Origin: Alphaproteobacteria bacterium
Lineage (GTDB): Bacteria; Pseudomonadota; Alphaproteobacteria; Rickettsiales; SXRF01
Direction: 5' to 3'
Length of the DNA stretch: 64,000 nucleotides
Assembly: GCA_025360605.1 (NCBI GenBank)
Contig: JANYBV010000018.1
Location: forward strand, 124,001-188,000
The translations under genes and the position numbers were made by a program. Positions 28,197 to 39,217 of this stretch are shown here, piece by piece; the first letter of the stretch is position 1, and every line of letters begins with the position of its first letter. Under the pieces are notes generated by a model that was not told the origin of the DNA, did no database searches, and saw nothing but the letters and a program-made list of their open reading frames with translations.

Positions 28197-30224
28197 TTAG
28201 GGAGCGTTCTGATCGCCAACGGTCTGGACAATCATATCAACGCGGTCAGGATCGCCACCCGGATTTTTGTCGCCTTCCGCCTGCACGTTGATGCGCAGGT
28301 TGTTGACACCGGCATCAATCAGGAACGCCCTGACGGATAAAGCGCGAGACAAAGAAATACGACGCGCGGTACTGACCTGATCGCCGATTGCAGCAGCATA
28401 GGCAATCAACGTTACACGCTGATTATTATTCTGTATCAGCTGTTTGGCAAGCTTATTGATGTCTTCTTTTACTGATAACGGCACTGTGGTTTCAGTACTC
28501 TTGAATGCGATGGTCAAAGAAGGCTTAGAGCTATCCGTTGGCTTTGCAGGCGCTGTGGCAAGGGCTTTGGCGGTCGCATCCACGGCAGCGGAATCGGCTG
28601 CCGGAGCCGGAGGTGCTGGTGGTGCAGGAGGGGCAGCCGCAGGAGCATTGATAAGCGGTTCATCAGCTTTTGGTGCAGGCGCTGCCGGAGCCGGAGGGGC
28701 TGGCGGTGGCGGTGGTGCAGGAGGAGCTGCCGCAGGAGCAGGAGGCGGCGGTGGAGGCGGAGGAGCGGCGGCTGCCGGTGCAGGCGGAGGTGGCGCTGCT
28801 GCCGGTGCAGGCGGAGCTGGAGGTGTAGGAGCAGTTGGTGCGGCCGGTGGCGCTGCCGGAGGAGCAGGAGGGGCAGGAGGTGTAGCAGCAGCGGGGGCTG
28901 GTGGAGCCGCAGGTGGTGCTGGTGGCGCAGCGGCTTTCTTCGCATCTTCTGCCGCTTTCGCTGCCGCGGCTTTTTTAGCTTCTTCAGCAGCCTTCGCATC
29001 AGCAATTTTTTTAGCTTCCTCTGCTGCTTTTGCATCAGCAGCGGCCTTTGCATCGGCTGCTTTCTTCGCTTCTTCGGCAGCCTTCGCATCAGCAATGGCT
29101 TTGGCAGCGGCTACTTTTTTGGCTTCCTCTGCCGCTTTCGCTTCATTAGCAGCATTGGCAGCCGCCACTTTTTTGGCTTCTTCGGCCGCTTTGGCATCGG
29201 CAACAGCTTTAATCTTGGCTGCTTTGGCGGCTTCTTTTGCAGCCTTGGCATCAGCGATTTTTTGCGCAGCGGCTGCCTTCTTTGCATCGGCAGCTGCTTT
29301 GGCATCGGCCAATTTTTTATCATGCGCGGCTTTTTTCTCGGCCGTTTGCGGTTCAGCTTTTACTTTTGCGGCTTTTGCCGCCTGTTTATGTTTTTTGCCA
29401 GCCTTGTTATCGGTATCGGTTTTGGCGACGGCTTCTTTTTTGCCTTTGCCTTTTTTCTTCGATGCTTCTTTTACAGGTTTTTCAGGCAGCGGCTGACCTT
29501 TCGGGCCTTCAATCCATACCAGTCGTGGGGCAGATTGCACCTGAACCTGTTGTTGCTGGTAATTTGGTTGAGCAACAGGCTGCTGATAGTTTGATTGTGG
29601 AGCTGCCTGATCGGTTGCCGGAGGTAAAGCGACACCTTGTTGTAAAGGCAGCGGGGCCGTTTTTTGTTCGGGCGGATAAACCACCTGTTCGGTCATTTGC
29701 GGTGCGGCGGTCTGAACGGGCTGTTGCTGCACCGGAGCGCTCGCATTATAGGGTTGAGCAGGGGCATAAGGTTGTACCGGAGCGTTTTCCACTGCCTGTG
29801 GTGCTGCCTCTTCGGTCTGTTGCTGAGCCGCATTCGGATCAGCAAGCTGGTCCTTATAATATTGAGAAAATGGCTGGCGTTCCGGACGGTATCCGCCGGC
29901 AGGAGCGAGTTGTGACAACGGTTGTGCGGCAGGCGCTGCGTTTGGCTGCGGCGCGGCTTGCGCTACCGGTTGCTGTACGGGCTGCGTGTATACGGTGGTT
30001 TGTGAAGTGGCATTGGACCCTAGGAGAGGTTTGAGCGGCTGCTGAGTGTCACTGGTGTTGCCGCCGGTAACATAGGCATTAGCAACGGGCATGCCCGGAG
30101 TTGGGATCTGGTCGGCAGCATAGGCATCGGCAGAAAGAACCATCAGGCAGGTGCCTGCGATAAAACGCAATAGAGGGAGGCGGGCAATGTCTATTACAAC
30201 GTTCAGGTTCTTACAATGAGCCAT
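28197..30224 (-). CDS. OmpA-like envelope protein with TolA-like Ala/Lys repeats and Pro/Ala-rich region
   Basis: The start at 30224 (AGGA five bases upstream) gives a 675-residue protein with an export signal ending ADAYA near residue 36. Layout: Gln/Pro-rich region to about residue 250; a Lys-rich stretch; repeated AKAAEEAKK units coded about 28930-29330; an Ala/Pro-rich segment coded about 28590-28930; and a C-terminal OmpA-like domain coded 28197-28520. In that domain the SLSRALSVRAFLIDAGV helix keeps its Arg, but the usual HTD motif reads AYAAAIGD, so peptidoglycan binding may be altered. The low-complexity parts resemble the periplasm-spanning arm of TolA. It lies 32 bases ahead of yebC. 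Confidence 0.85.
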   Translation of the reverse strand: MAHCKNLNVVIDIARLPLLRFIAGTCLMVLSADAYAADQIPTPGMPVANAYVTGGNTSDTQQPLKPLLGSNATSQTTVYTQPVQQPVAQAAPQPNAAPAAQPLSQLAPAGGYRPERQPFSQYYKDQLADPNAAQQQTEEAAPQAVENAPVQPYAPAQPYNASAPVQQQPVQTAAPQMTEQVVYPPEQKTAPLPLQQGVALPPATDQAAPQSNYQQPVAQPNYQQQQVQVQSAPRLVWIEGPKGQPLPEKPVKEASKKKGKGKKEAVAKTDTDNKAGKKHKQAAKAAKVKAEPQTAEKKAAHDKKLADAKAAADAKKAAAAQKIADAKAAKEAAKAAKIKAVADAKAAEEAKKVAAANAANEAKAAEEAKKVAAAKAIADAKAAEEAKKAADAKAAADAKAAEEAKKIADAKAAEEAKKAAAAKAAEDAKKAAAPPAPPAAPPAPAAATPPAPPAPPAAPPAAPTAPTPPAPPAPAAAPPPPAPAAAAPPPPPPPPAPAAAPPAPPPPPAPPAPAAPAPKADEPLINAPAAAPPAPPAPPAPAADSAAVDATAKALATAPAKPTDSSKPSLTIAFKSTETTVPLSVKEDINKLAKQLIQNNNQRVTLIAYAAAIGDQVSTARRISLSRALSVRAFLIDAGVNNLRINVQAEGDKNPGGDPDRVDMIVQTVGDQNAP

Positions 30225-30373
30225 AGCAATCCTAAAAAAACGAGCGACAAACATGCACCAGAGAACTGGTACACTTAATTCACTTTATTGATTAAGTCAA
30301 AATAGCAGATTTAAGCAACTGAAATCTCGCTGCCGAATTTAATTATATTTTTTTAGTGTTGAAAAAACAAAAA

Positions 30374-31183: not shown

Positions 31184-31753
31184 TTAAGAGGCTTTCGCGC
31201 GTTCAACATATTCAAGCGTGGTGGTATCGACGATAATGGTCTCACCAGCCGGAATAAACGGAGGAACCATCACGCGCACACCATTTTCAAGAATGGCGGG
31301 TTTATAGGAAGAAGTCGCCGTCTGGCCTTTAACCACAGGGTCAGCTTCAACAATTTTAACAGCCACTTTGCTTGGAAGCTTCACCGAAAGCGGGCGACTT
31401 TCGTAGGTTTCGATTTCGACCGTCATGCCGTCTTGTAAAAATGCGAAGCGTTCGCCGAGCATGTCCTTGTTCATGGTGATCTGTTCATAGGATTCGTTAT
31501 CCATGAAGGTCAGCACGTCGCCATCGGCGAAGAGGAAGTTATAGGGTTTGGAATCCAGCGATACGCGCTCGATCTTTTCATCGGATGCGAAACGAGGGGT
31601 GTTTTTGGTGCCGGTCATGATGTCTTTGAGTTCCACCTGATTGAACGAGCGCAGGTTCCCCGGCGTACGGATTTCGTGCTTCACCACAAGCCACAGCTTA
31701 TCCTGCCATTCAATCACCATACCCATGCGCACCGCGCCACCATCAATCTTCAT
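31184..31753 (-). CDS. efp: Elongation factor P with Asn at the modification position
   Basis: EF-P relieves ribosome stalling at polyproline. The 189 residues show all three domains, and the C-terminal part is strongly conserved (PVVKGQTATSSYKPAILENG, VMVPPFIPAGE). The loop that inserts into the peptidyl-transferase centre reads RTPGNLRSFNQVELK; the residue after PG, normally a modified Lys (or Arg in the EarP type), is Asn33. No modification gene is next to it. It lies between thiE (11-base overlap) and suhB. Confidence 0.96.
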   Translation of the reverse strand: MKIDGGAVRMGMVIEWQDKLWLVVKHEIRTPGNLRSFNQVELKDIMTGTKNTPRFASDEKIERVSLDSKPYNFLFADGDVLTFMDNESYEQITMNKDMLGERFAFLQDGMTVEIETYESRPLSVKLPSKVAVKIVEADPVVKGQTATSSYKPAILENGVRVMVPPFIPAGETIIVDTTTLEYVERAKAS

Positions 31754-32384
31754 TTCGTATCTCCTTATTAAATTCTTCTACTGCCTTGGCCGGCCCCTCA
31801 GGATGCTCCCACACGGCGGTAATGACCGCAATGAAATCCGCTCCGGCTTTAACCAAAGGCTTACAGTTATGCGGGGTAATACCACCGATAGCGACGCAGG
31901 GCAAGATCATAAATGCCTGCCACCATTCAAGAATGTCCAGTGTTGGTGTTCCCCAGCGGGCCAAGGCTTCAGGACTTTTGCTTTTGGTGGGGTAAAACGC
32001 TCCGAAGGCCACATAATCCGCGCCCTGTTCCCCTGCTTCCATGCCTAAATGGCGGGAATCATGGCAGCTCACGCCAATCACACGGTCGGGCCCGACGAGC
32101 GCGCGGGCTTTCCTGATGTCGCCGTCGTCCTGACCTATATGCACGCCGTCAGCGTTGGTGGCCACGGCGAGGTCAGGCCGGTCATTCATGATAAACGCCA
32201 CATCGTGGGCATGGCAGATAGGAATTAATATTTTGGCAGCTTCAACAATGGCTTGATCGGTGGTGTGTTTAAGGCGGATCTGGAAGCTTCCAACGTCTCC
32301 GCCATCAAAGGCTTGTTCAAGTCGTTTGGCAAATGTGTCAATTTCAATGGTGGGGGGGCTAATAAGGTAGAGTCGGGTGGTCAT
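31743..32384 (-). CDS. thiE: Thiamine-phosphate synthase
   Basis: ThiE joins HMP-PP and the thiazole phosphate to thiamine phosphate. The TIM-barrel protein of 213 residues has FQIRLKHTTDQ, the phosphate-binding FIMNDRPDLAV, ADGVHIGQDD, IGVSCHD, the AFYPTKSK loop, and PCVAIGGITPHN. It lies 2 bases after the giant repeat gene and overlaps efp by 11 bases, so these are probably on one transcript. Confidence 0.94.
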   Translation of the reverse strand: MTTRLYLISPPTIEIDTFAKRLEQAFDGGDVGSFQIRLKHTTDQAIVEAAKILIPICHAHDVAFIMNDRPDLAVATNADGVHIGQDDGDIRKARALVGPDRVIGVSCHDSRHLGMEAGEQGADYVAFGAFYPTKSKSPEALARWGTPTLDILEWWQAFMILPCVAIGGITPHNCKPLVKAGADFIAVITAVWEHPEGPAKAVEEFNKEIRNED

Positions 32385-32386
32385 GG

Positions 32387-35300
32387 TTATTTTCTTACCG
32401 TTTGCGGTCCTTTTCCGTTAGCAATAATTTTTTTAGCATGCGTAGTGCCTGAACCTTCCTGAGTGTTCAGAGCTATATCGAACTCTATGTTTAGCGCATT
32501 TGCAACCTCGGCGGGAGTAAATGTTTTGGTCACAAGGTGCGGCCCTTCATTTTCAATGGTTGCGGTCTCATGATATCCGTAGCCCACCGAAGGTAACCTG
32601 ATCTTGACCGCGTTACCATTACTGGTTTCGGTGGTGAGTGGCTTTTCAAAGACAATAGCCTCACGCTCAATATCGCTTAAATCCATAGACGCCTGTATCA
32701 TATCCCTTAGCACCGCTTCCATTTTACTGCCGTCCTCATCGGGGGCGTATTTATCAAGCAACTGTTTGGGTACAAAAAGAAACGGGACGGGAGGATAGTA
32801 TTCTTTGGGGGCATAATTCTTAAATGGATTATCGGTAGAGAAACCATTGGATTTTTTGATAATGCTCAGCAGATGCCCCAGCCGCAGGTGATCGGCGCTT
32901 TCTTTGCAGCTATGGACGGGGTGTTCTGTAATAGCTTTCTTGAGTGTCTCCAGATCCGGTGGGTTTTCGGTGAATGTAGTCCCAAGTATTGCATCAAAAG
33001 ACTTGAACACCTGTGTCTGCTGATCTTCGGTCAGTGCATGGGAGGTGAGGTAGTTGTGAAATTCAGCCAGTTGAAGATCAAAAGCGCGTGGTTCACCAAT
33101 AAACTGTATGTTACCGCTTTCCTCGCGGTTAAGAACAAGCACGCACATTGGCGGGGTAGGAAAGATTTTATCTTCATTGGAAGTAAACCGCCGCCGTATC
33201 ATATCGATAAAACGTTTTCCGCGGCTTGGCTTTGGTTCTTCTTTACCATTTGCAGCAGCACCATTACCGATATTTTCACTTGAATAAATCAGCCGGACGT
33301 TGCTCTCATGATTGCCTCGTGTCGATGATCCGATGTTTTTTACACCTGCTGTTTCTTCCAGTGCTTTTGCGACCTGTAATGCGCTTAGTGTTTCCAGCGT
33401 AACGTTACCATCAACGTGTTCATGTTCATAGGTAATGGGCCTGAGTTTTATTTTATAAAGAGATCCTGTTTTTTCCAGTTTGATGGCTGAAAACTGTTGA
33501 AATTTCAGACCAAAGGTGGAGCGGAATACATCTTGCAAGGCTTTTTCCACCTCCTTGTCGTCTTGTAACCTCAGGGTTTGTTTGATGTCCTGTGTAATAT
33601 ACAGGCATGGCACGGTTTCTTCGCCATGTTTAACAAACCAGATGTTTGCCTTTCGTATTTCACGCATGATTGGTGCATCGGCAAGAAATCTTTTGCGTTG
33701 TTCTTCCGGCAGTGCCGAGAAGGCGGCAAACCTCTCAGCGAAACTACGTTTTTGGGGGACGAAAAGGTGCTTGTCCGGCGCAATGACGGGATCAACCGGT
33801 TCAGGCTTTGTCCTGAAACGTACTTTGTTATCCACCACAGCTGTGGTCGGAGTATTTTCAATTGGCACACCTAACGAGTCAGCATCACTCAGCAATTGGG
33901 CGACCTGAGTCGGGGTGAGTGTTTCCGTAACGGTCTCACGTTTAACCGGAGGCGCCTCTGTCTCTTCGGCAACGGTTTCAGATTCATCTGTTACCGCAGG
34001 TTTTGGAGGTTTGGGGGGGATGGGCCTTGGCGTGACGATGTGTTCATCATTGGGATCGGGCGCGCCATCGACCGCGTCATAGGTGCAGCTGATAAAAGGG
34101 AGTTTCACTTTCAGTAGCGTATTACCGGAACCGTTGCTGGCACGCTCTACCCTGATCGCTCCGATCTGGTCTTCGTGCAATCCAAGGGTAAACGCTAAAA
34201 TATCGCGGACTATTTCGGTTGCTCTTGTTTCAATGGGCTCATTGTTATGGTTGTGTAGGGAGCGTTCAAATTCCGGCAACGAAAAATATAAAAAAGGTTC
34301 AATCTGGTCTTCGGGTTTGATCGTCTCGCTGGTGGGGAGCTTCACCTTTGGTTTGGGGGGCTTTTTTTCTGTTTTTTTCTCCGTCTCAGGTGGCGGCGGT
34401 TTAACGCTGTCTTTAGAATAAAAAATTGCGCCACGTTTCAGCACATCGAAGGATGCGCTGTTCCTGAGTGTACTGTGGTAGTTTTTAAGCGGGTTATGGT
34501 CGGGCAATCTTGATTGTGGCCTTTGAACCCTTTGCAGGAATACTTCCAGTGCGTCGCGGTGCGGGGTGTGAGGCTTTAGCTGCACGGCCATTTTTAACGC
34601 CCCTGCCATGGTCGTTGGACCATCGGGGTATTTTGCCTTGATGGCTTCTGCCAGTATGTTTGGGTTTTTTCCAAGCGTAGCTGAAGTAAAAGGTGTATTA
34701 AGCTGTTCACGCAGTTCGTTATTAATAACATAGCACGCCCACTCTTTTTGCAATTGAGTGAGGTCGTGAACCATGAAATGGCATAATCTTGCGACTCTAT
34801 ATTCAATGGGGCCTTGGGTTTCGGCGAGCCGCTGTGCTTCCGGCAATAAATTCACATAGCTGATTTCTTCCAGTGGATTCATCTTGCTTAAGTCCAGTGT
34901 GCGGGGCTCTTTTTTCTGTTCGCCATTAGCAGGTGGGGGCGTAGAAACAGGGGGCGCTGGAGGCTTGATAAAGGCAAAGTCTTTTTCAAAAATAGGTGTG
35001 TCTTCCGAATTTTTTAACCTGATGCCGAGTGCTTCGCTTAACGCGATGGCAAGTTCAGCGCGGCTTTGGGTGATTTTTTCAACCTCGCTTCCTTTTTCAA
35101 AACAGGGGTCGCCGGTGCCTTTTTCATATTCGGTAGTGATTTCAGGAATTTTGATTCTGTAATAGCGTCCCTTGGCCTGGACATTGATGCTCTGTAACTG
35201 GCTGTCTCTGAGGCCAAGACTCGTCTGTAGTATATGGCGGGCAAAATCAGGTATATTGCTGCTCGGAATACCTGCCACTTGTGCAAAATCACGAGGCAAG

Positions 35301-38077
35301 AACAGATAAGGTTGGGATGCTTCCGGTGGCATAAGTGGTGGTTTTTCATTGACACGTGTTCCGAGAAGATTGCTCAGTTTTCGTGCGATGTGTTCTGCTG
35401 TTCTTTTGGATATGGCGGCAGGTTTGCTTGCCGTGTTTGCAGAGGTGTCTGATGAAAATGTTGGGATTCCAACCTTATAATGCTCAGCATTTTCATGGAT
35501 AGTGATCTTGTCGAGCAATTCATCCGGCAGTCCGAGTTGTTCCTTGAATACCGTTCTCAGCACTTCAGGCAGTTTATCTTTAATCTGGCATGTTTTTTCT
35601 TTGGGCGGTGAGTCTGTCTTGTTGGCGCTGGTGGAGTTATCAGCCGGTATGTTATCGGGTGCCGCGCTTTTTTGCAGCCTTCCGTCGGTTTTGCCAAATT
35701 TTGTGTGTTTGGGGGCGATAGCAGGAGTTTTGGCTTTAACGCCATTGGTGGTTGGGGTATCTTCAGTTTTTTCGATTTTTTTGGCGATGCTAAAGTAAGG
35801 TTGCCTGAATTCAGGCAAATTATCTTCGGCGGATACAAATGGTTTGATAAAACAAATTTCCGCTTTCTTGACGCAGGCAAGAATCTGGGCGCGCTCATCG
35901 TTGCGGATGTTCAGGCCCATGCGCTCACGTTGTGCCGGAGAAAAACTTTTAATGTAAGCAAGGCGTTCAAAAAATCCGAGTTTTTCTAGCCGTGCAGGAT
36001 CAATTTTATGGGGATCTTCTTTGGGAAGGGATATCTCGGCGGGAGTTTTCTTTTTTTTGGGCGCGACTATAAATGGCCTGCGAACAGGGATTTCATTATC
36101 AAGATCATCCAAAGAAATCTCTGGTTCCTCATGGCTTTCTGTTGCCGCGTCTTCGGCCGGCTTGGCATGGACAGTTTTCCGTCGATCAAAGAATTTGCGC
36201 AGCGCTGAAGAAAGCTTGCAGGCTTCAATGACAATGTCATTATGTTCTTCGCTTACCGGTTCATCGGGATAAAGGGTGAGGTCAAACGTGGTGACGGGAT
36301 CACGCGTCACGCGATTTTTTATTTCCGCGTTATAGTGTTGCTTGTTTAGCAGGGCGGCAGCATTTTTCTTAACTTCAACTTGTATATCATGATGGATGGT
36401 ATGGGCATGATCTTTTGAAAGCATTTCGATCAGCAATTCATCAAAAAGTGCATCGAATCGTGCTTTGTTGTCATTTTTGATCACCCTTCGCAATGATTCG
36501 GATTGTCGGCAAGCGGCAATGATTGCGGCATTGAGTTTGGCATGGGCAGGGTCGTCCGTAACTATGGTCAGCGTAAGGCGATCGGCAAGTGACTGGAGTT
36601 TTTCTTCCTGAGTCGTCATTTCCGGAATTGTATTTTTAATAATTTTGGCAAGGTTCATCCGAATTTCTTTTTCAACCGCTTCAGGTATTTTTAATGGCTT
36701 TTCCGGACGGAGGTATTCATTAAGCAGATCAAGATATAACTCCTGATAACTGTCGGTATTACGCAACTTAACCAGCTTACGCATGGCTTGGGATTGCTTG
36801 CAGGCCTCAATGACGGCTTCATTATGGCCTTTGCTCGTTTCGTCATTCATGTCGACCACTAAATCAACATCGCGGGCGTGATAAACGGGGTGTTGTTTGG
36901 AATAGCCGGAATTAAATAGCTGTAGGGCATTTTTTAAAATGTCTGCTTCAACTTCAGCCGGTAGGTTTTCCGTACGTTCCGGCGAAAGAAAGGGGATGAT
37001 GCCTTCTACGAATTTACGGTCATAGCTTTCGTCTTCCTCCAGTTCGAAAGAGGTGCGAGGCCTTGAAGCGCCTTTGGGCAATTTAGCATAATCCTCTAGA
37101 GGTATAGTCATCCTGTTGCTGGGATTGTCGATATGCCGGAGCTTCACCACCCATGATTGTCTTCTCCGTTCATCGGTTTCGAGTTGGGTACGTGCTATGA
37201 AGTCAGGAAAAATTTCAGATACGCGTGTAATTTCTGATGCCAGCGGGGTGTTTTCATAAAACTTACCCCATAGCTTGGTAAATTCAGGTACATGATCTTG
37301 AATGACAGGTACTATTTCCCTGACTTGTTCAGGTGAAAGCGGTTCTATGAAGGGATTATCGCTTTGTTGTTTTTTTACGAAGGGGCCTTTGTCTTCAGAA
37401 GCTTCGATTAACTCAAATTTGGTTTCTCTGCCATTTTTTTTGTCAATCACATGGACGTGTGCGGGGCCATGTTCGTATTTATCACCACGTGTTGTTACTT
37501 GCGGATGTTTTACCCCACGCCCATTTTCAACAAAGCTGGTCAGGTTGTCGTTACCGTCAACGGTTGGGGGGGTGCTTTCACTTTTCAAATCAGTGCTATC
37601 GAATTTTTCCGGTGCATAGACCACAATACGGTAGTCATTCTTACCGGAGGTAACGTCGAATCCCCATCCATACGATCCGGCTGCTTTGGGGTGTTCCGGA
37701 TCAGGGGCAAACTGTATCAGATGCTCATCAAATAGAGCGTCAAACCGTGCTTTATTTTCCTTTTTGATAAAGTTGCGTAGAGATTCCGTCTGTTTGCATG
37801 CTGTTATGATGGCTTCATTGAGTTTGGCGTGATCAGGATCATCAGGCACAATTATCAGTTCCATGCGTTCGGCGAGTGCGGAGATTTTTTCTTCCTTGCT
37901 GGTTATTTCCGGAATTGAACTTTTGATAATATTTGCAAGGTTAAGCCGTATACTTTTTTTAATAGTATCAGGAATTTTCAAAGGCTCGTCCTGTCGCAGA
38001 TAGGACTCTAGCAGTTCAGTATACAATGCCTGATAACTATCGATGAAGTTATGTTGTGCAGGTGATGGCTTATCCAT
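32387..38077 (-). CDS. Giant modular repeat protein (1896 residues), unknown family
   Basis: I recognise no domain family across this uninterrupted frame. No signal peptide or membrane helix is seen, so it should be cytoplasmic unless exported by another route. The protein is built from internal repeats. Module A is at residues 13-122 and 442-551, about two thirds identical by eye. A related half-module with the core EACKQS is at about 376-438 and 565-632. Module B is at about 835-912, 921-1028, 1260-1410, 1489-1582 and 1764-1872. Module C is at about 1080-1200 and 1651-1755, each ending NP(L/F)KNY. Module D is at about 696-768 and 1438-1500, with a shorter version near 1066-1090. Linkers are rich in Pro, Lys and Thr. 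No clear ribosome-binding site precedes the ATG. It is followed by thiE (2 bases), with fba upstream. A frame this long without a stop, with conserved repeats, is certainly coding; function is unknown. Confidence 0.9.
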   Translation of the reverse strand: MDKPSPAQHNFIDSYQALYTELLESYLRQDEPLKIPDTIKKSIRLNLANIIKSSIPEITSKEEKISALAERMELIIVPDDPDHAKLNEAIITACKQTESLRNFIKKENKARFDALFDEHLIQFAPDPEHPKAAGSYGWGFDVTSGKNDYRIVVYAPEKFDSTDLKSESTPPTVDGNDNLTSFVENGRGVKHPQVTTRGDKYEHGPAHVHVIDKKNGRETKFELIEASEDKGPFVKKQQSDNPFIEPLSPEQVREIVPVIQDHVPEFTKLWGKFYENTPLASEITRVSEIFPDFIARTQLETDERRRQSWVVKLRHIDNPSNRMTIPLEDYAKLPKGASRPRTSFELEEDESYDRKFVEGIIPFLSPERTENLPAEVEADILKNALQLFNSGYSKQHPVYHARDVDLVVDMNDETSKGHNEAVIEACKQSQAMRKLVKLRNTDSYQELYLDLLNEYLRPEKPLKIPEAVEKEIRMNLAKIIKNTIPEMTTQEEKLQSLADRLTLTIVTDDPAHAKLNAAIIAACRQSESLRRVIKNDNKARFDALFDELLIEMLSKDHAHTIHHDIQVEVKKNAAALLNKQHYNAEIKNRVTRDPVTTFDLTLYPDEPVSEEHNDIVIEACKLSSALRKFFDRRKTVHAKPAEDAATESHEEPEISLDDLDNEIPVRRPFIVAPKKKKTPAEISLPKEDPHKIDPARLEKLGFFERLAYIKSFSPAQRERMGLNIRNDERAQILACVKKAEICFIKPFVSAEDNLPEFRQPYFSIAKKIEKTEDTPTTNGVKAKTPAIAPKHTKFGKTDGRLQKSAAPDNIPADNSTSANKTDSPPKEKTCQIKDKLPEVLRTVFKEQLGLPDELLDKITIHENAEHYKVGIPTFSSDTSANTASKPAAISKRTAEHIARKLSNLLGTRVNEKPPLMPPEASQPYLFLPRDFAQVAGIPSSNIPDFARHILQTSLGLRDSQLQSINVQAKGRYYRIKIPEITTEYEKGTGDPCFEKGSEVEKITQSRAELAIALSEALGIRLKNSEDTPIFEKDFAFIKPPAPPVSTPPPANGEQKKEPRTLDLSKMNPLEEISYVNLLPEAQRLAETQGPIEYRVARLCHFMVHDLTQLQKEWACYVINNELREQLNTPFTSATLGKNPNILAEAIKAKYPDGPTTMAGALKMAVQLKPHTPHRDALEVFLQRVQRPQSRLPDHNPLKNYHSTLRNSASFDVLKRGAIFYSKDSVKPPPPETEKKTEKKPPKPKVKLPTSETIKPEDQIEPFLYFSLPEFERSLHNHNNEPIETRATEIVRDILAFTLGLHEDQIGAIRVERASNGSGNTLLKVKLPFISCTYDAVDGAPDPNDEHIVTPRPIPPKPPKPAVTDESETVAEETEAPPVKRETVTETLTPTQVAQLLSDADSLGVPIENTPTTAVVDNKVRFRTKPEPVDPVIAPDKHLFVPQKRSFAERFAAFSALPEEQRKRFLADAPIMREIRKANIWFVKHGEETVPCLYITQDIKQTLRLQDDKEVEKALQDVFRSTFGLKFQQFSAIKLEKTGSLYKIKLRPITYEHEHVDGNVTLETLSALQVAKALEETAGVKNIGSSTRGNHESNVRLIYSSENIGNGAAANGKEEPKPSRGKRFIDMIRRRFTSNEDKIFPTPPMCVLVLNREESGNIQFIGEPRAFDLQLAEFHNYLTSHALTEDQQTQVFKSFDAILGTTFTENPPDLETLKKAITEHPVHSCKESADHLRLGHLLSIIKKSNGFSTDNPFKNYAPKEYYPPVPFLFVPKQLLDKYAPDEDGSKMEAVLRDMIQASMDLSDIEREAIVFEKPLTTETSNGNAVKIRLPSVGYGYHETATIENEGPHLVTKTFTPAEVANALNIEFDIALNTQEGSGTTHAKKIIANGKGPQTVRK

Positions 38078-38287
38078 AAGCGCGACAATCCGCGTTTAAT
38101 GGCAGGCAATCCAAGCAATTGTTCTCGACGCAACAGATGGTTTTCATCACTGCCTTTTTCAGCCAGTTTTTACGGTCACTTAAACTAGATTAACTTCTTT
38201 GGTAAGAATAGTGACAATTTGAAGAAAAGCAGGCTCACGCCCTCTTTTCAAACAGGGTAAAAACCGGTGCCGAGGAAGGTAGGCGGA

Positions 38288-39217
38288 TTAAAGTTCGCCT
38301 TTGTACACTTTAATGATATTATCGAGAAGCTTAAGCGCTTCTTCGCGTGGACGCTGGAAGGTGTTGCGGCCGATGATGGAGCCGTTGCCGCCTCCATCGC
38401 GGATGCCGCGTACTTCGTCCAGCAGCTCTTTTTCGCCCTTGGCATTGCCACCGGAAAATACGACGATACGCTTACCGGCAAAGCAGGCTTGTTTCACATG
38501 GGCGATACGCTCAGCCATGGTCTTAATGCCAACCTTTTCAGATTCATAGACCTTTTTGGCTTCAGCCTGTTCAAGGAATTCGGTTGGGGGCTTCACTTTA
38601 ATGATGTGGGCGCCGAGCAGGGCGGCCATATGAGCTGCGTATGCACAGACATCCATAGCGGTTTCACCATCTTTGGAAATGGATGCCCCACGTGGGTATG
38701 ACCAAATCACGACGGCAAGGCCAGCGGCTTTGGCTTCTTCCGCCAGTTCGCGGATTTCTTCCATCAGGCTGAAGGCTTCATGAGAACCCGGATAAATGGT
38801 AAAACCAATAGCGGAGCAACCAAGGCGAAGCGCATCCGCCACCGTGGCGGTTACGGCCTGATCGGGCACACTGTCTTTCGGGGTGAGAGAATTTGAGCTA
38901 TTAACTTTTAAAATCAATGGGATCTGACCAGCAAAGGTGTCGGCTCCGGCTTCGATCATCCCAAGCGGTGCGGCGTAGGCGTTCAGACCTGCATCGATAG
39001 CGAGCTGAAAATGATAATGCGGGTCGTAGGCATCAGGATTTTTGGCAAAACTGCGGGCAGGGCCGTGTTCGAAGCCCTGATCGACTGGAAGAATCACCAC
39101 ATGCCCCGTGCCACCCAAGCGACCCTGCATCAGGATGCGTGCAATGTTGGCTTTGGTACCTGGGCAATCACTTTCGTAATGGCTGAGGATTTTTTTTACT
39201 TTGGGGGTCATTTTCAT
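38288..39217 (-). CDS. fbaB: Class I fructose-bisphosphate aldolase (DhnA/FbaB type)
   Basis: This aldolase splits or forms fructose-1,6-bisphosphate by a Schiff base. The 309 residues form a TIM barrel with HVVILPVDQGFEHGPARSF, the Schiff-base lysine region AHIIKVKPPTEF and the phosphate-binding VVFSGGNAKGE and GGGNGSIIGRNTFQR. It is the prokaryotic class I type, not the zinc class II enzyme. GGAGAG lies five bases ahead of the ATG. About 210 bases without a recognised gene separate it from the repeat gene downstream. Confidence 0.93.
   Translation of the reverse strand: MKMTPKVKKILSHYESDCPGTKANIARILMQGRLGGTGHVVILPVDQGFEHGPARSFAKNPDAYDPHYHFQLAIDAGLNAYAAPLGMIEAGADTFAGQIPLILKVNSSNSLTPKDSVPDQAVTATVADALRLGCSAIGFTIYPGSHEAFSLMEEIRELAEEAKAAGLAVVIWSYPRGASISKDGETAMDVCAYAAHMAALLGAHIIKVKPPTEFLEQAEAKKVYESEKVGIKTMAERIAHVKQACFAGKRIVVFSGGNAKGEKELLDEVRGIRDGGGNGSIIGRNTFQRPREEALKLLDNIIKVYKGEL

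What the first reader, a model, noticed from the sequence alone, without database searches (positions are those of the whole stretch)
32387..38077. A 1896-residue mosaic of repeats with no recognised domain
One unbroken minus-strand frame codes a protein made almost wholly of at least four distinct internal repeat families (A, B, C, D) in the order A, half-A, A, half-A, D, B, B, D', C, B, D, B, C, B. Order and copy number suggest growth by unequal duplication of whole blocks. D-B and C-B pairs recur, as if D-B-C-B were a larger unit duplicated once. There is no signal peptide, membrane helix or catalytic motif I can name. This is the strongest candidate for an undescribed system in the window.
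Basis: partly seen in the sequence, partly recalled or inferred. Interest (0 to 1): 0.85.

Follow-up and report, generated by a model that had tools for sequence, protein, structure and literature searches.

The report
Orphan modular repeat protein, rare lineage
A very large protein assembled from two building blocks that no library we searched knows, repeated four and five times, plus one small distantly known domain, was found in almost no other genome examined; it looks real and kept by selection, but its job is still a guess.

Summary
Window 32387-38077 (-) is one open 1896-codon frame. Two repeat families hold up: A (4 copies) and the D-B unit (5 B copies, 2 clear D copies). C and 'D-B-C-B duplicated once' fail: C1 and C2 best share six residues and 133 of 1000 shuffles score as high. 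AlphaFold models A (all-helical) and D-B (alpha/beta) with fair confidence; no convincing PDB match. Strong A and B hits came only from this genome and one of another genus of the same family (262 sampled order genomes; weak hits in others, two of five checked and chance-like); in 385 class genomes only this one. By inference the host is a free-living-type Rickettsiales with duplicated VirB4 (rvh T4SS-like). The gene fills an accessory slot between an aldolase gene and thiE; two relatives carry W alone there. Copies A1/A3 show dN/dS about 0.14, suggesting constraint. Best reading: a soluble, multivalent binding protein, possibly an rvh T4SS substrate; function inferred, not shown.

The parts
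32387..38077 (-). whole open frame, 1896 aa, with stop
   Evidence: genome place C30:156390-162077, one match in the genome
37712..38041 (-). A1 (aa 13-122), helical module; later copy of A3 plus the helix that follows it (inferred)
37043..37705 (-). W (aa 125-345), DUF4160-like domain with conserved EHGPxHVHVxDK and a C-terminal extension
36755..37030 (-). A2 (aa 350-441)
36425..36754 (-). A3 (aa 442-551); modelled alone (aa 440-552), pLDDT 83.5, pTM 0.74
36158..36445 (-). A4 (aa 545-640), longest branch among the A copies
35843..35992 (-). D1 (aa 696-745), start of unit 1
   Evidence: aa 696-760 tested; D1-D4 0 of 1000 shuffles
35333..35587 (-). B1 (aa 831-915), cut from D1 by an ~85-residue insert
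34958..35323 (-). B2 (aa 919-1040)
34814..34882 (-). start of a D-like stretch (aa 1066-1088) before C1
   Evidence: weak
34478..34825 (-). C1 (aa 1085-1200), not shown to be a repeat
33788..34312 (-). B3 (aa 1256-1430), with a proline-rich insert
33278..33760 (-). D4-B4 (aa 1440-1600), the one complete D-B unit; modelled, pLDDT 77.5, pTM 0.70
32807..33136 (-). C2 (aa 1648-1757), not shown to be a repeat
32414..32788 (-). B5 (aa 1764-1888)
32390..32449 (-). last 20 residues, net charge +5 with no acidic residue
   Evidence: the only one of 39 window genes chosen for that call at +4 or more
38288..39217 (-). aldolase gene (Pfam DeoC/LacD family; 'FBA' is my recalled name), upstream edge of the slot
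31743..32384 (-). thiE-like gene, downstream edge of the slot (2 nt gap)

Best explanation
SHOWN: an open, apparently constrained gene for a protein without membrane stretches, built from two module types that no library searched here knows (A; D-B), both predicted to fold (A helical, D-B alpha/beta), with proline-rich linkers and a DUF4160-like domain (W) between the first two A copies. SHOWN: it lies in an accessory slot between an aldolase gene and thiE, where two relatives keep W as a free-standing gene and others keep unrelated genes or nothing. INFERRED origin: an A/B-type gene, found elsewhere in the chromosome of a second genus, was joined to the resident W gene; later a copy of A3 was placed in front of W. 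INFERRED mechanism: the repeated modules act as several binding sites in one chain, so the protein gathers or grips partner molecules while W supplies the one distinct activity. INFERRED and weakest: it is made in the cytoplasm and handed to the rvh-type type IV secretion system by its basic tail, to act on neighbouring microbes or protists.
For: Open frame, repeats and linkers. A1/A3 NG86 dN 0.235, dS 1.73, ratio about 0.14. Folded models from 8 and 5 sequences. A second protein with A once and D-B three times in G007, 1001-1008 aa. Slot survey: in 13 family genomes, own included, thiE follows the aldolase gene; 6 of 13 hold cargo (this gene; W in G008 and G010; Abi_alpha in G005; MAPEG in G013; a frame with a sub-cut-off CCDC90-like match in G003), 7 of 13 do not. 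W profile: 3 of 262 genomes of the order, all three in this slot, though these are also the three sequences it was built from; the plain protein search found the two relatives on its own. VirB4: 17 of 17 order genomes tested have at least 2 matches, own genome 3; control 1 of 14. Basic tail: 1 of 39 window genes at net +4 or more; 8 of 206 mechanically listed ORFs at +5 or more.
Against: Nothing here tests secretion or binding. The G007 tail is only +3 by my count of the tail printed, and 14 of 206 ORFs reach +4, so the tail is weak evidence. The nearest VirB4 lies about 39 kb away, not beside the gene. No ankyrin, TPR, LRR or similar effector domain was found. The two A/B proteins have different neighbours. 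No partner gene was found. The joining order of W, A and B rests on few genomes. dS is near saturation, so the dN/dS value is rough.
Confidence: 0.33

Rival explanations
1. A purely intracellular scaffold or structural protein: repeats give many docking sites for a cytoplasmic complex, and nothing is secreted.
For: No membrane-like stretch; repeated modules on linkers; stop lies 2 nt before thiE, among housekeeping genes.
Against: No match in the 2 held genomes of the same genus (98% and 79% complete) nor in most of the family, unusual for a housekeeping scaffold; no conserved partner gene found.
Confidence: 0.3
2. An accessory defence or toxin gene: W is a DUF4160-type toxic core and A/D-B sense or restrain it.
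For: W relates to DUF4160; in Thermus a DUF4160 protein behaved as the toxin of a DUF4160/DUF2442 pair (PMC12724237, section 7 read), and DUF4160/DUF2442 is listed as a toxin-antitoxin pair in PMC12654330 (one passage); the same slot holds Abi_alpha in G005; a chance-level PHROG match to Ren-like exclusion protein, E 0.043.
Against: No DUF2442 in this protein or the nine neighbours scanned; no PADLOC match (best Csn2, E 0.068); the G007 protein has A and D-B without W. The Thermus paper saw no effect of the single genes in E. coli.
Confidence: 0.2
3. A decaying or selfish orphan frame without function.
For: Low GC (0.461 against a mean of 0.524 over 39 window genes, z -2.4), strong divergence of B copies, rarity.
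Against: 5.7 kb open frame; A1/A3 dN/dS about 0.14; predicted folds.
Confidence: 0.07

Closest known systems
   Same: one A module then three D-B units, 28-39% identity per matched piece
   Different: 1001-1008 aa, no W match, other N-terminal and middle parts, other chromosomal place
Free-standing W proteins of G008 and G010
   Same: same slot between the aldolase gene and thiE; found by the plain protein search (E 4e-16 and 7e-11)
   Different: about 243 and 195 aa, no A or B match
Pfam DUF4160 (PF13711)
   Same: three of three W sequences match it at E below 1
   Different: full protein and the two relatives stay below the curated cut-off of 23 bits, the cut-out window domain reaches 23.1; long extension; no DUF2442 partner seen
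Rickettsiales rvh T4SS effectors (REMs), as described in PMC11077975 (passages read)
   Same: modular, often lineage-restricted proteins shaped by fission, fusion and duplication; duplicated VirB4 in this genome
   Different: no homology to a named effector was tested; secretion untested

Membership tests
Pfam DUF4160 (PF13711) | score over the curated cut-off of 23 bits | tested here: inconclusive
   full protein 18.7, W cut out 23.1, G008 16.7, G010 21.6 bits
DUF4160/DUF2442 toxin-antitoxin pair | adjacent DUF2442 partner | tested here: not met
   Pfam scan of this protein and nine neighbours shows none at E 0.1
rvh T4SS effector | genome holds duplicated VirB4, a mark of the rvh T4SS | tested here: met
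   VirB4 family PF03135: 3 matches in own genome, 2 or more in 17 of 17 genomes tested; other T4SS parts not searched
rvh T4SS effector | no Sec signal or membrane helix | tested here: inconclusive
   hydropathy only, no membrane-like stretch; no signal-peptide program at hand
rvh T4SS effector | C-terminal signal / binding to the coupling protein RvhD4 | not testable with these tools
   tail net +5 is compatible but 8 of 206 ORFs reach it
repeat effectors with ankyrin, TPR, LRR or pentapeptide repeats | recognisable repeat of one of these classes | tested here: not met
   no such Pfam match in the protein (E 0.1) or in the A and B copies
LAGLIDADG-like fold for D-B | clear structural match over most of the domain | tested here: inconclusive
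   I-DmoI Z 4.8, rmsd 3.9, 81 aligned; RNA polymerase III chain Z 5.3, rmsd 4.3, 96 aligned; both in the range the tool calls common

The most novel reading that the evidence does not exclude
A free-living-type Rickettsiales uses its rvh type IV secretion system to export a giant weapon whose DUF4160-like toxic core (W) rides inside a carrier made of two new domain folds (A and D-B) that bind the target cell's proteins; it would be a concrete substrate for the ancestral, pre-parasitic role of rvh.
Probability: 0.1. Interest if true: 0.8.

Novelty: new variant of a known kind. Interest (0 to 1): 0.45.

Why it matters
Two module families without a detectable relative outside one bacterial family are new to the libraries searched here. 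The gene also gives a snapshot of how a giant orphan protein can arise: a small gene (W), still alone in the same slot of two relatives, sits inside a repeat protein in a third. If the secretion reading holds, it offers a testable substrate for the question of what the rvh T4SS did before Rickettsiales became parasites, a question raised in PMC9352585 and PMC11077975 (passages read).

Tried and rejected
C as a repeat family and D-B-C-B as a duplicated block: not supported, C1-C2 133 of 1000 shuffles. Whole-protein self-BLAST printed no off-diagonal pairs, so I used windowed Smith-Waterman. Of five weak profile hits in the order I looked at two: G112 reads as ClpB and G116 as an undecaprenyl-diphosphate-synthase gene, names recalled from the sequences; G118, G147 and G160 were not examined. 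No confirmed relatives in viral contigs (3 scans), no match in phages or plasmids. NCBIfam: best E 0.32; PHROGs: best E 0.043 for this protein. PDB sequence searches: best E 1.4 for the protein, 0.28 or worse for the profiles. Foldseek: no match with E 0.001 or better for B in PDB (best 0.064) or viral models (best 0.013), or for A in PDB (best 5.2); VIA-align best Z 5.3 for B and 3.5 for A. These do not prove new folds; A was not compared with the viral library, and W, C1 and C2 were not modelled. B-copy tree: unresolved. Neighbour hyp143 of the G007 gene: found in G007 and its congener G011 of 11 genomes, in another context in G011 (contig 74% complete genome), and G011 gave no A/B match, so no linkage seen. 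Promoter and terminator scan of 37900-38400: none found. A first guess of another order was dropped; its name was not in the taxonomy. Papers: none naming JAGVLO, none with Rickettsiales, metagenome-assembled and DUF4160 together; one search held 219 papers, of which I saw the 10 listed titles and abstract starts; searches listed 4 and 6. I read passages of PMC9352585, PMC11077975, PMC10847448 and PMC12654330 and one section of PMC12724237.

Full report
What is there. Window 32387-38077, minus strand, is a single open frame of 1896 codons, with one match in the genome. Its start lies 210 nt after the aldolase gene (38288-39217) and its stop 2 nt before the thiE-like gene (31743-32384), followed by efp and an inositol-monophosphatase gene.

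Repeat anatomy. Windowed Smith-Waterman gave a 99.9% null score of 54 from 1500 shuffled pairs; the best off-diagonal pair scores 367. Module tests with 1000 shuffles each support A (aa 13-122, 350-441, 442-551, 545-640) and B (aa 831-915, 919-1040, 1256-1430, 1486-1600, 1764-1888); B1 is the weak member, tied mainly to B2 and gB1. For D, D1-D4 is 0 of 1000 while D1-gD2 is 462 of 1000. C is not supported: C1-C2 133 of 1000, z 1.3. In the G007 protein D and B form one unit of about 170 residues in three successive copies, and a profile of these finds the B copies in the window protein. So I read D-B as one module, split or shortened in most copies of the window protein.

History of the repeats. 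A1 and A3 are 65% identical in protein (70 of 108) and 70% in DNA (224 of 318). The in-register match ends at about aa 121/550, beyond the A core, and so seems to take in the first helix of A4. dN 0.235 and dS 1.73 (NG86) point to purifying selection, with the caution that dS is near saturation. The A tree joins A1 with A3 (99/97) and, less firmly, A2 with A4 (83/83). For B no inner branch is well supported. By score, four of five window B copies (all but B1) match some G007 copy better than any window copy; by identity and path in the tree, however, B4 is nearest to B3. The B repeats thus look old or fast-diverging, but this is not settled.

The W domain. Residues 125-345 are not part of the repeats. 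Three related sequences (window, G008, G010) share EHGPxHVHVxDK and 32 invariant columns. DUF4160 is matched by three of three: 23.1 bits for the cut-out window domain against a cut-off of 23, and below it for the other two and for the full protein. I call it DUF4160-like.

The slot. Of the 16 family genomes seen (own included), the aldolase gene was found in 14 (for the relatives, 13 of 15, plus the window); G011 and G014, 74% and 55% complete, gave none. In G015 no thiE followed in the stretch fetched. In the other 13 thiE follows; cargo lies between in 6 of 13: this gene, W in G008 and G010, Abi_alpha on the other strand in G005, MAPEG in G013, and in G003 a 114-aa frame with a CCDC90-like match under the cut-off. 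In 7 of 13 (G001, G002, G004, G006, G007, G009, G012) the gap is about 105 nt or less. G001 and G002 are of the same genus and lack the gene.

Distribution. Protein search: 4 of 90 relatives matched at E 0.001, own included (G000, G007, G008, G010). B profile: 4 of 262 order genomes at E 0.01, own and G007 strong (E 2e-45, 2.5e-50), two weak (0.002, 0.005). A profile: 5 of 262, own and G007 strong, three weak (0.001-0.008). Own and G007 rows were in the profiles, so their strength is by construction; what counts is the lack of other strong hits. Class: 1 of 385 for each at E 0.001, own only; G007 was evidently not drawn. W: 3 of 262 in the order, which are the three sequences of the profile, and 1 of 260 in the class. 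One scan of the 84,980-species collection with a single peptide pattern confirmed 1 locus of 23 matching stretches, the G007 record JAGVLO010000008.1; that scan is narrow and may leave out the window's own genome. No viral, phage or plasmid match.

Which organism. Inference: three genomes of family f12 in the same order each hold five ATP/ADP translocases, and the other 14 of the 17 tested, four of f20 among them, hold none. Five is, from recall, the Rickettsia number, so the order is probably Rickettsiales. The own family lacks the translocase (0 of 8 tested) and holds two or more VirB4 (8 of 8). The window has cheA, cheB and cheR and a TadA/VirB11-type ATPase whose TadA-model score, 306.7 bits, is under that model's cut-off of 373. 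This fits the free-living-type families Mitibacteraceae and Athabascaceae of PMC9352585 (passages read), reported to have chemotaxis, an rvh T4SS with duplicated components and no translocase, Tad being reported for Mitibacteraceae. The family name stays unproven. PMC9352585 and PMC11077975 (passages) suggest rvh there may serve to kill other microbes or ward off protists; PMC9352585 could assign no verified effector to the ancestral system.

Structure. AlphaFold2 models: D4-B4, 161 residues, pLDDT 77.5, pTM 0.70, helices, two strands, helix, four strands, helix; A3, 113 residues, pLDDT 83.5, pTM 0.74, six helices. For alignments of 8 and 5 rows this supports folded modules. Comparisons with the PDB stay in the range the tool calls common. 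W, C1 and C2 were not modelled.

Function. The best I can support is a soluble multivalent protein. Repeated modules on flexible linkers often mean multivalent binding (general knowledge, not a test here). Lineage restriction, low GC (0.461, z -2.4 among 39 window genes), no membrane-like stretch, a basic tail and duplicated VirB4 make a secreted substrate a fair candidate, but each is weak: 8 of 206 mechanically listed ORFs have a tail of +5 or more. The DUF4160 link to a toxin in Thermus (PMC12724237, section 7), which had no effect in E. coli, and the Abi_alpha gene in the same slot of G005 keep a defence or toxin role open; the missing DUF2442 partner speaks against a classic pair.

Verdict. 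Real, apparently constrained, assembled from modules without known relatives, and rare; function inferred with about one-third confidence. I file it under no known family.

Noticed in passing
window 28197-30254 (-): OmpA-domain protein with a long alanine/proline/lysine-rich low-complexity stretch (54- and 108-base tandem repeats) whose frame length varies widely between relatives (349-747 aa); GC3 0.434 despite GC 0.563.
   Followed up: partly
slot between the aldolase gene and thiE (window 32385-38287) and loci L030, L033, L034, L037, L039: Variable accessory slot inside a conserved housekeeping block: Abi_alpha, MAPEG, W or nothing in different relatives.
   Followed up: yes
L027 3599-4138 (+): In congener G001 a 179-aa frame without Pfam match at E 0.01 sits between thiE and efp instead, a second nearby insertion point.
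   Followed up: partly
L044 8340-11363 (-), aa about 1-90 and 205-450: The G007 A/B protein has its own N-terminal and middle segments without a Pfam match.
   Followed up: no
G000 C30:116713-117318, and C13, C37: Three VirB4 matches in the own genome; one lies about 7 kb outside the window on the same contig.
   Followed up: partly
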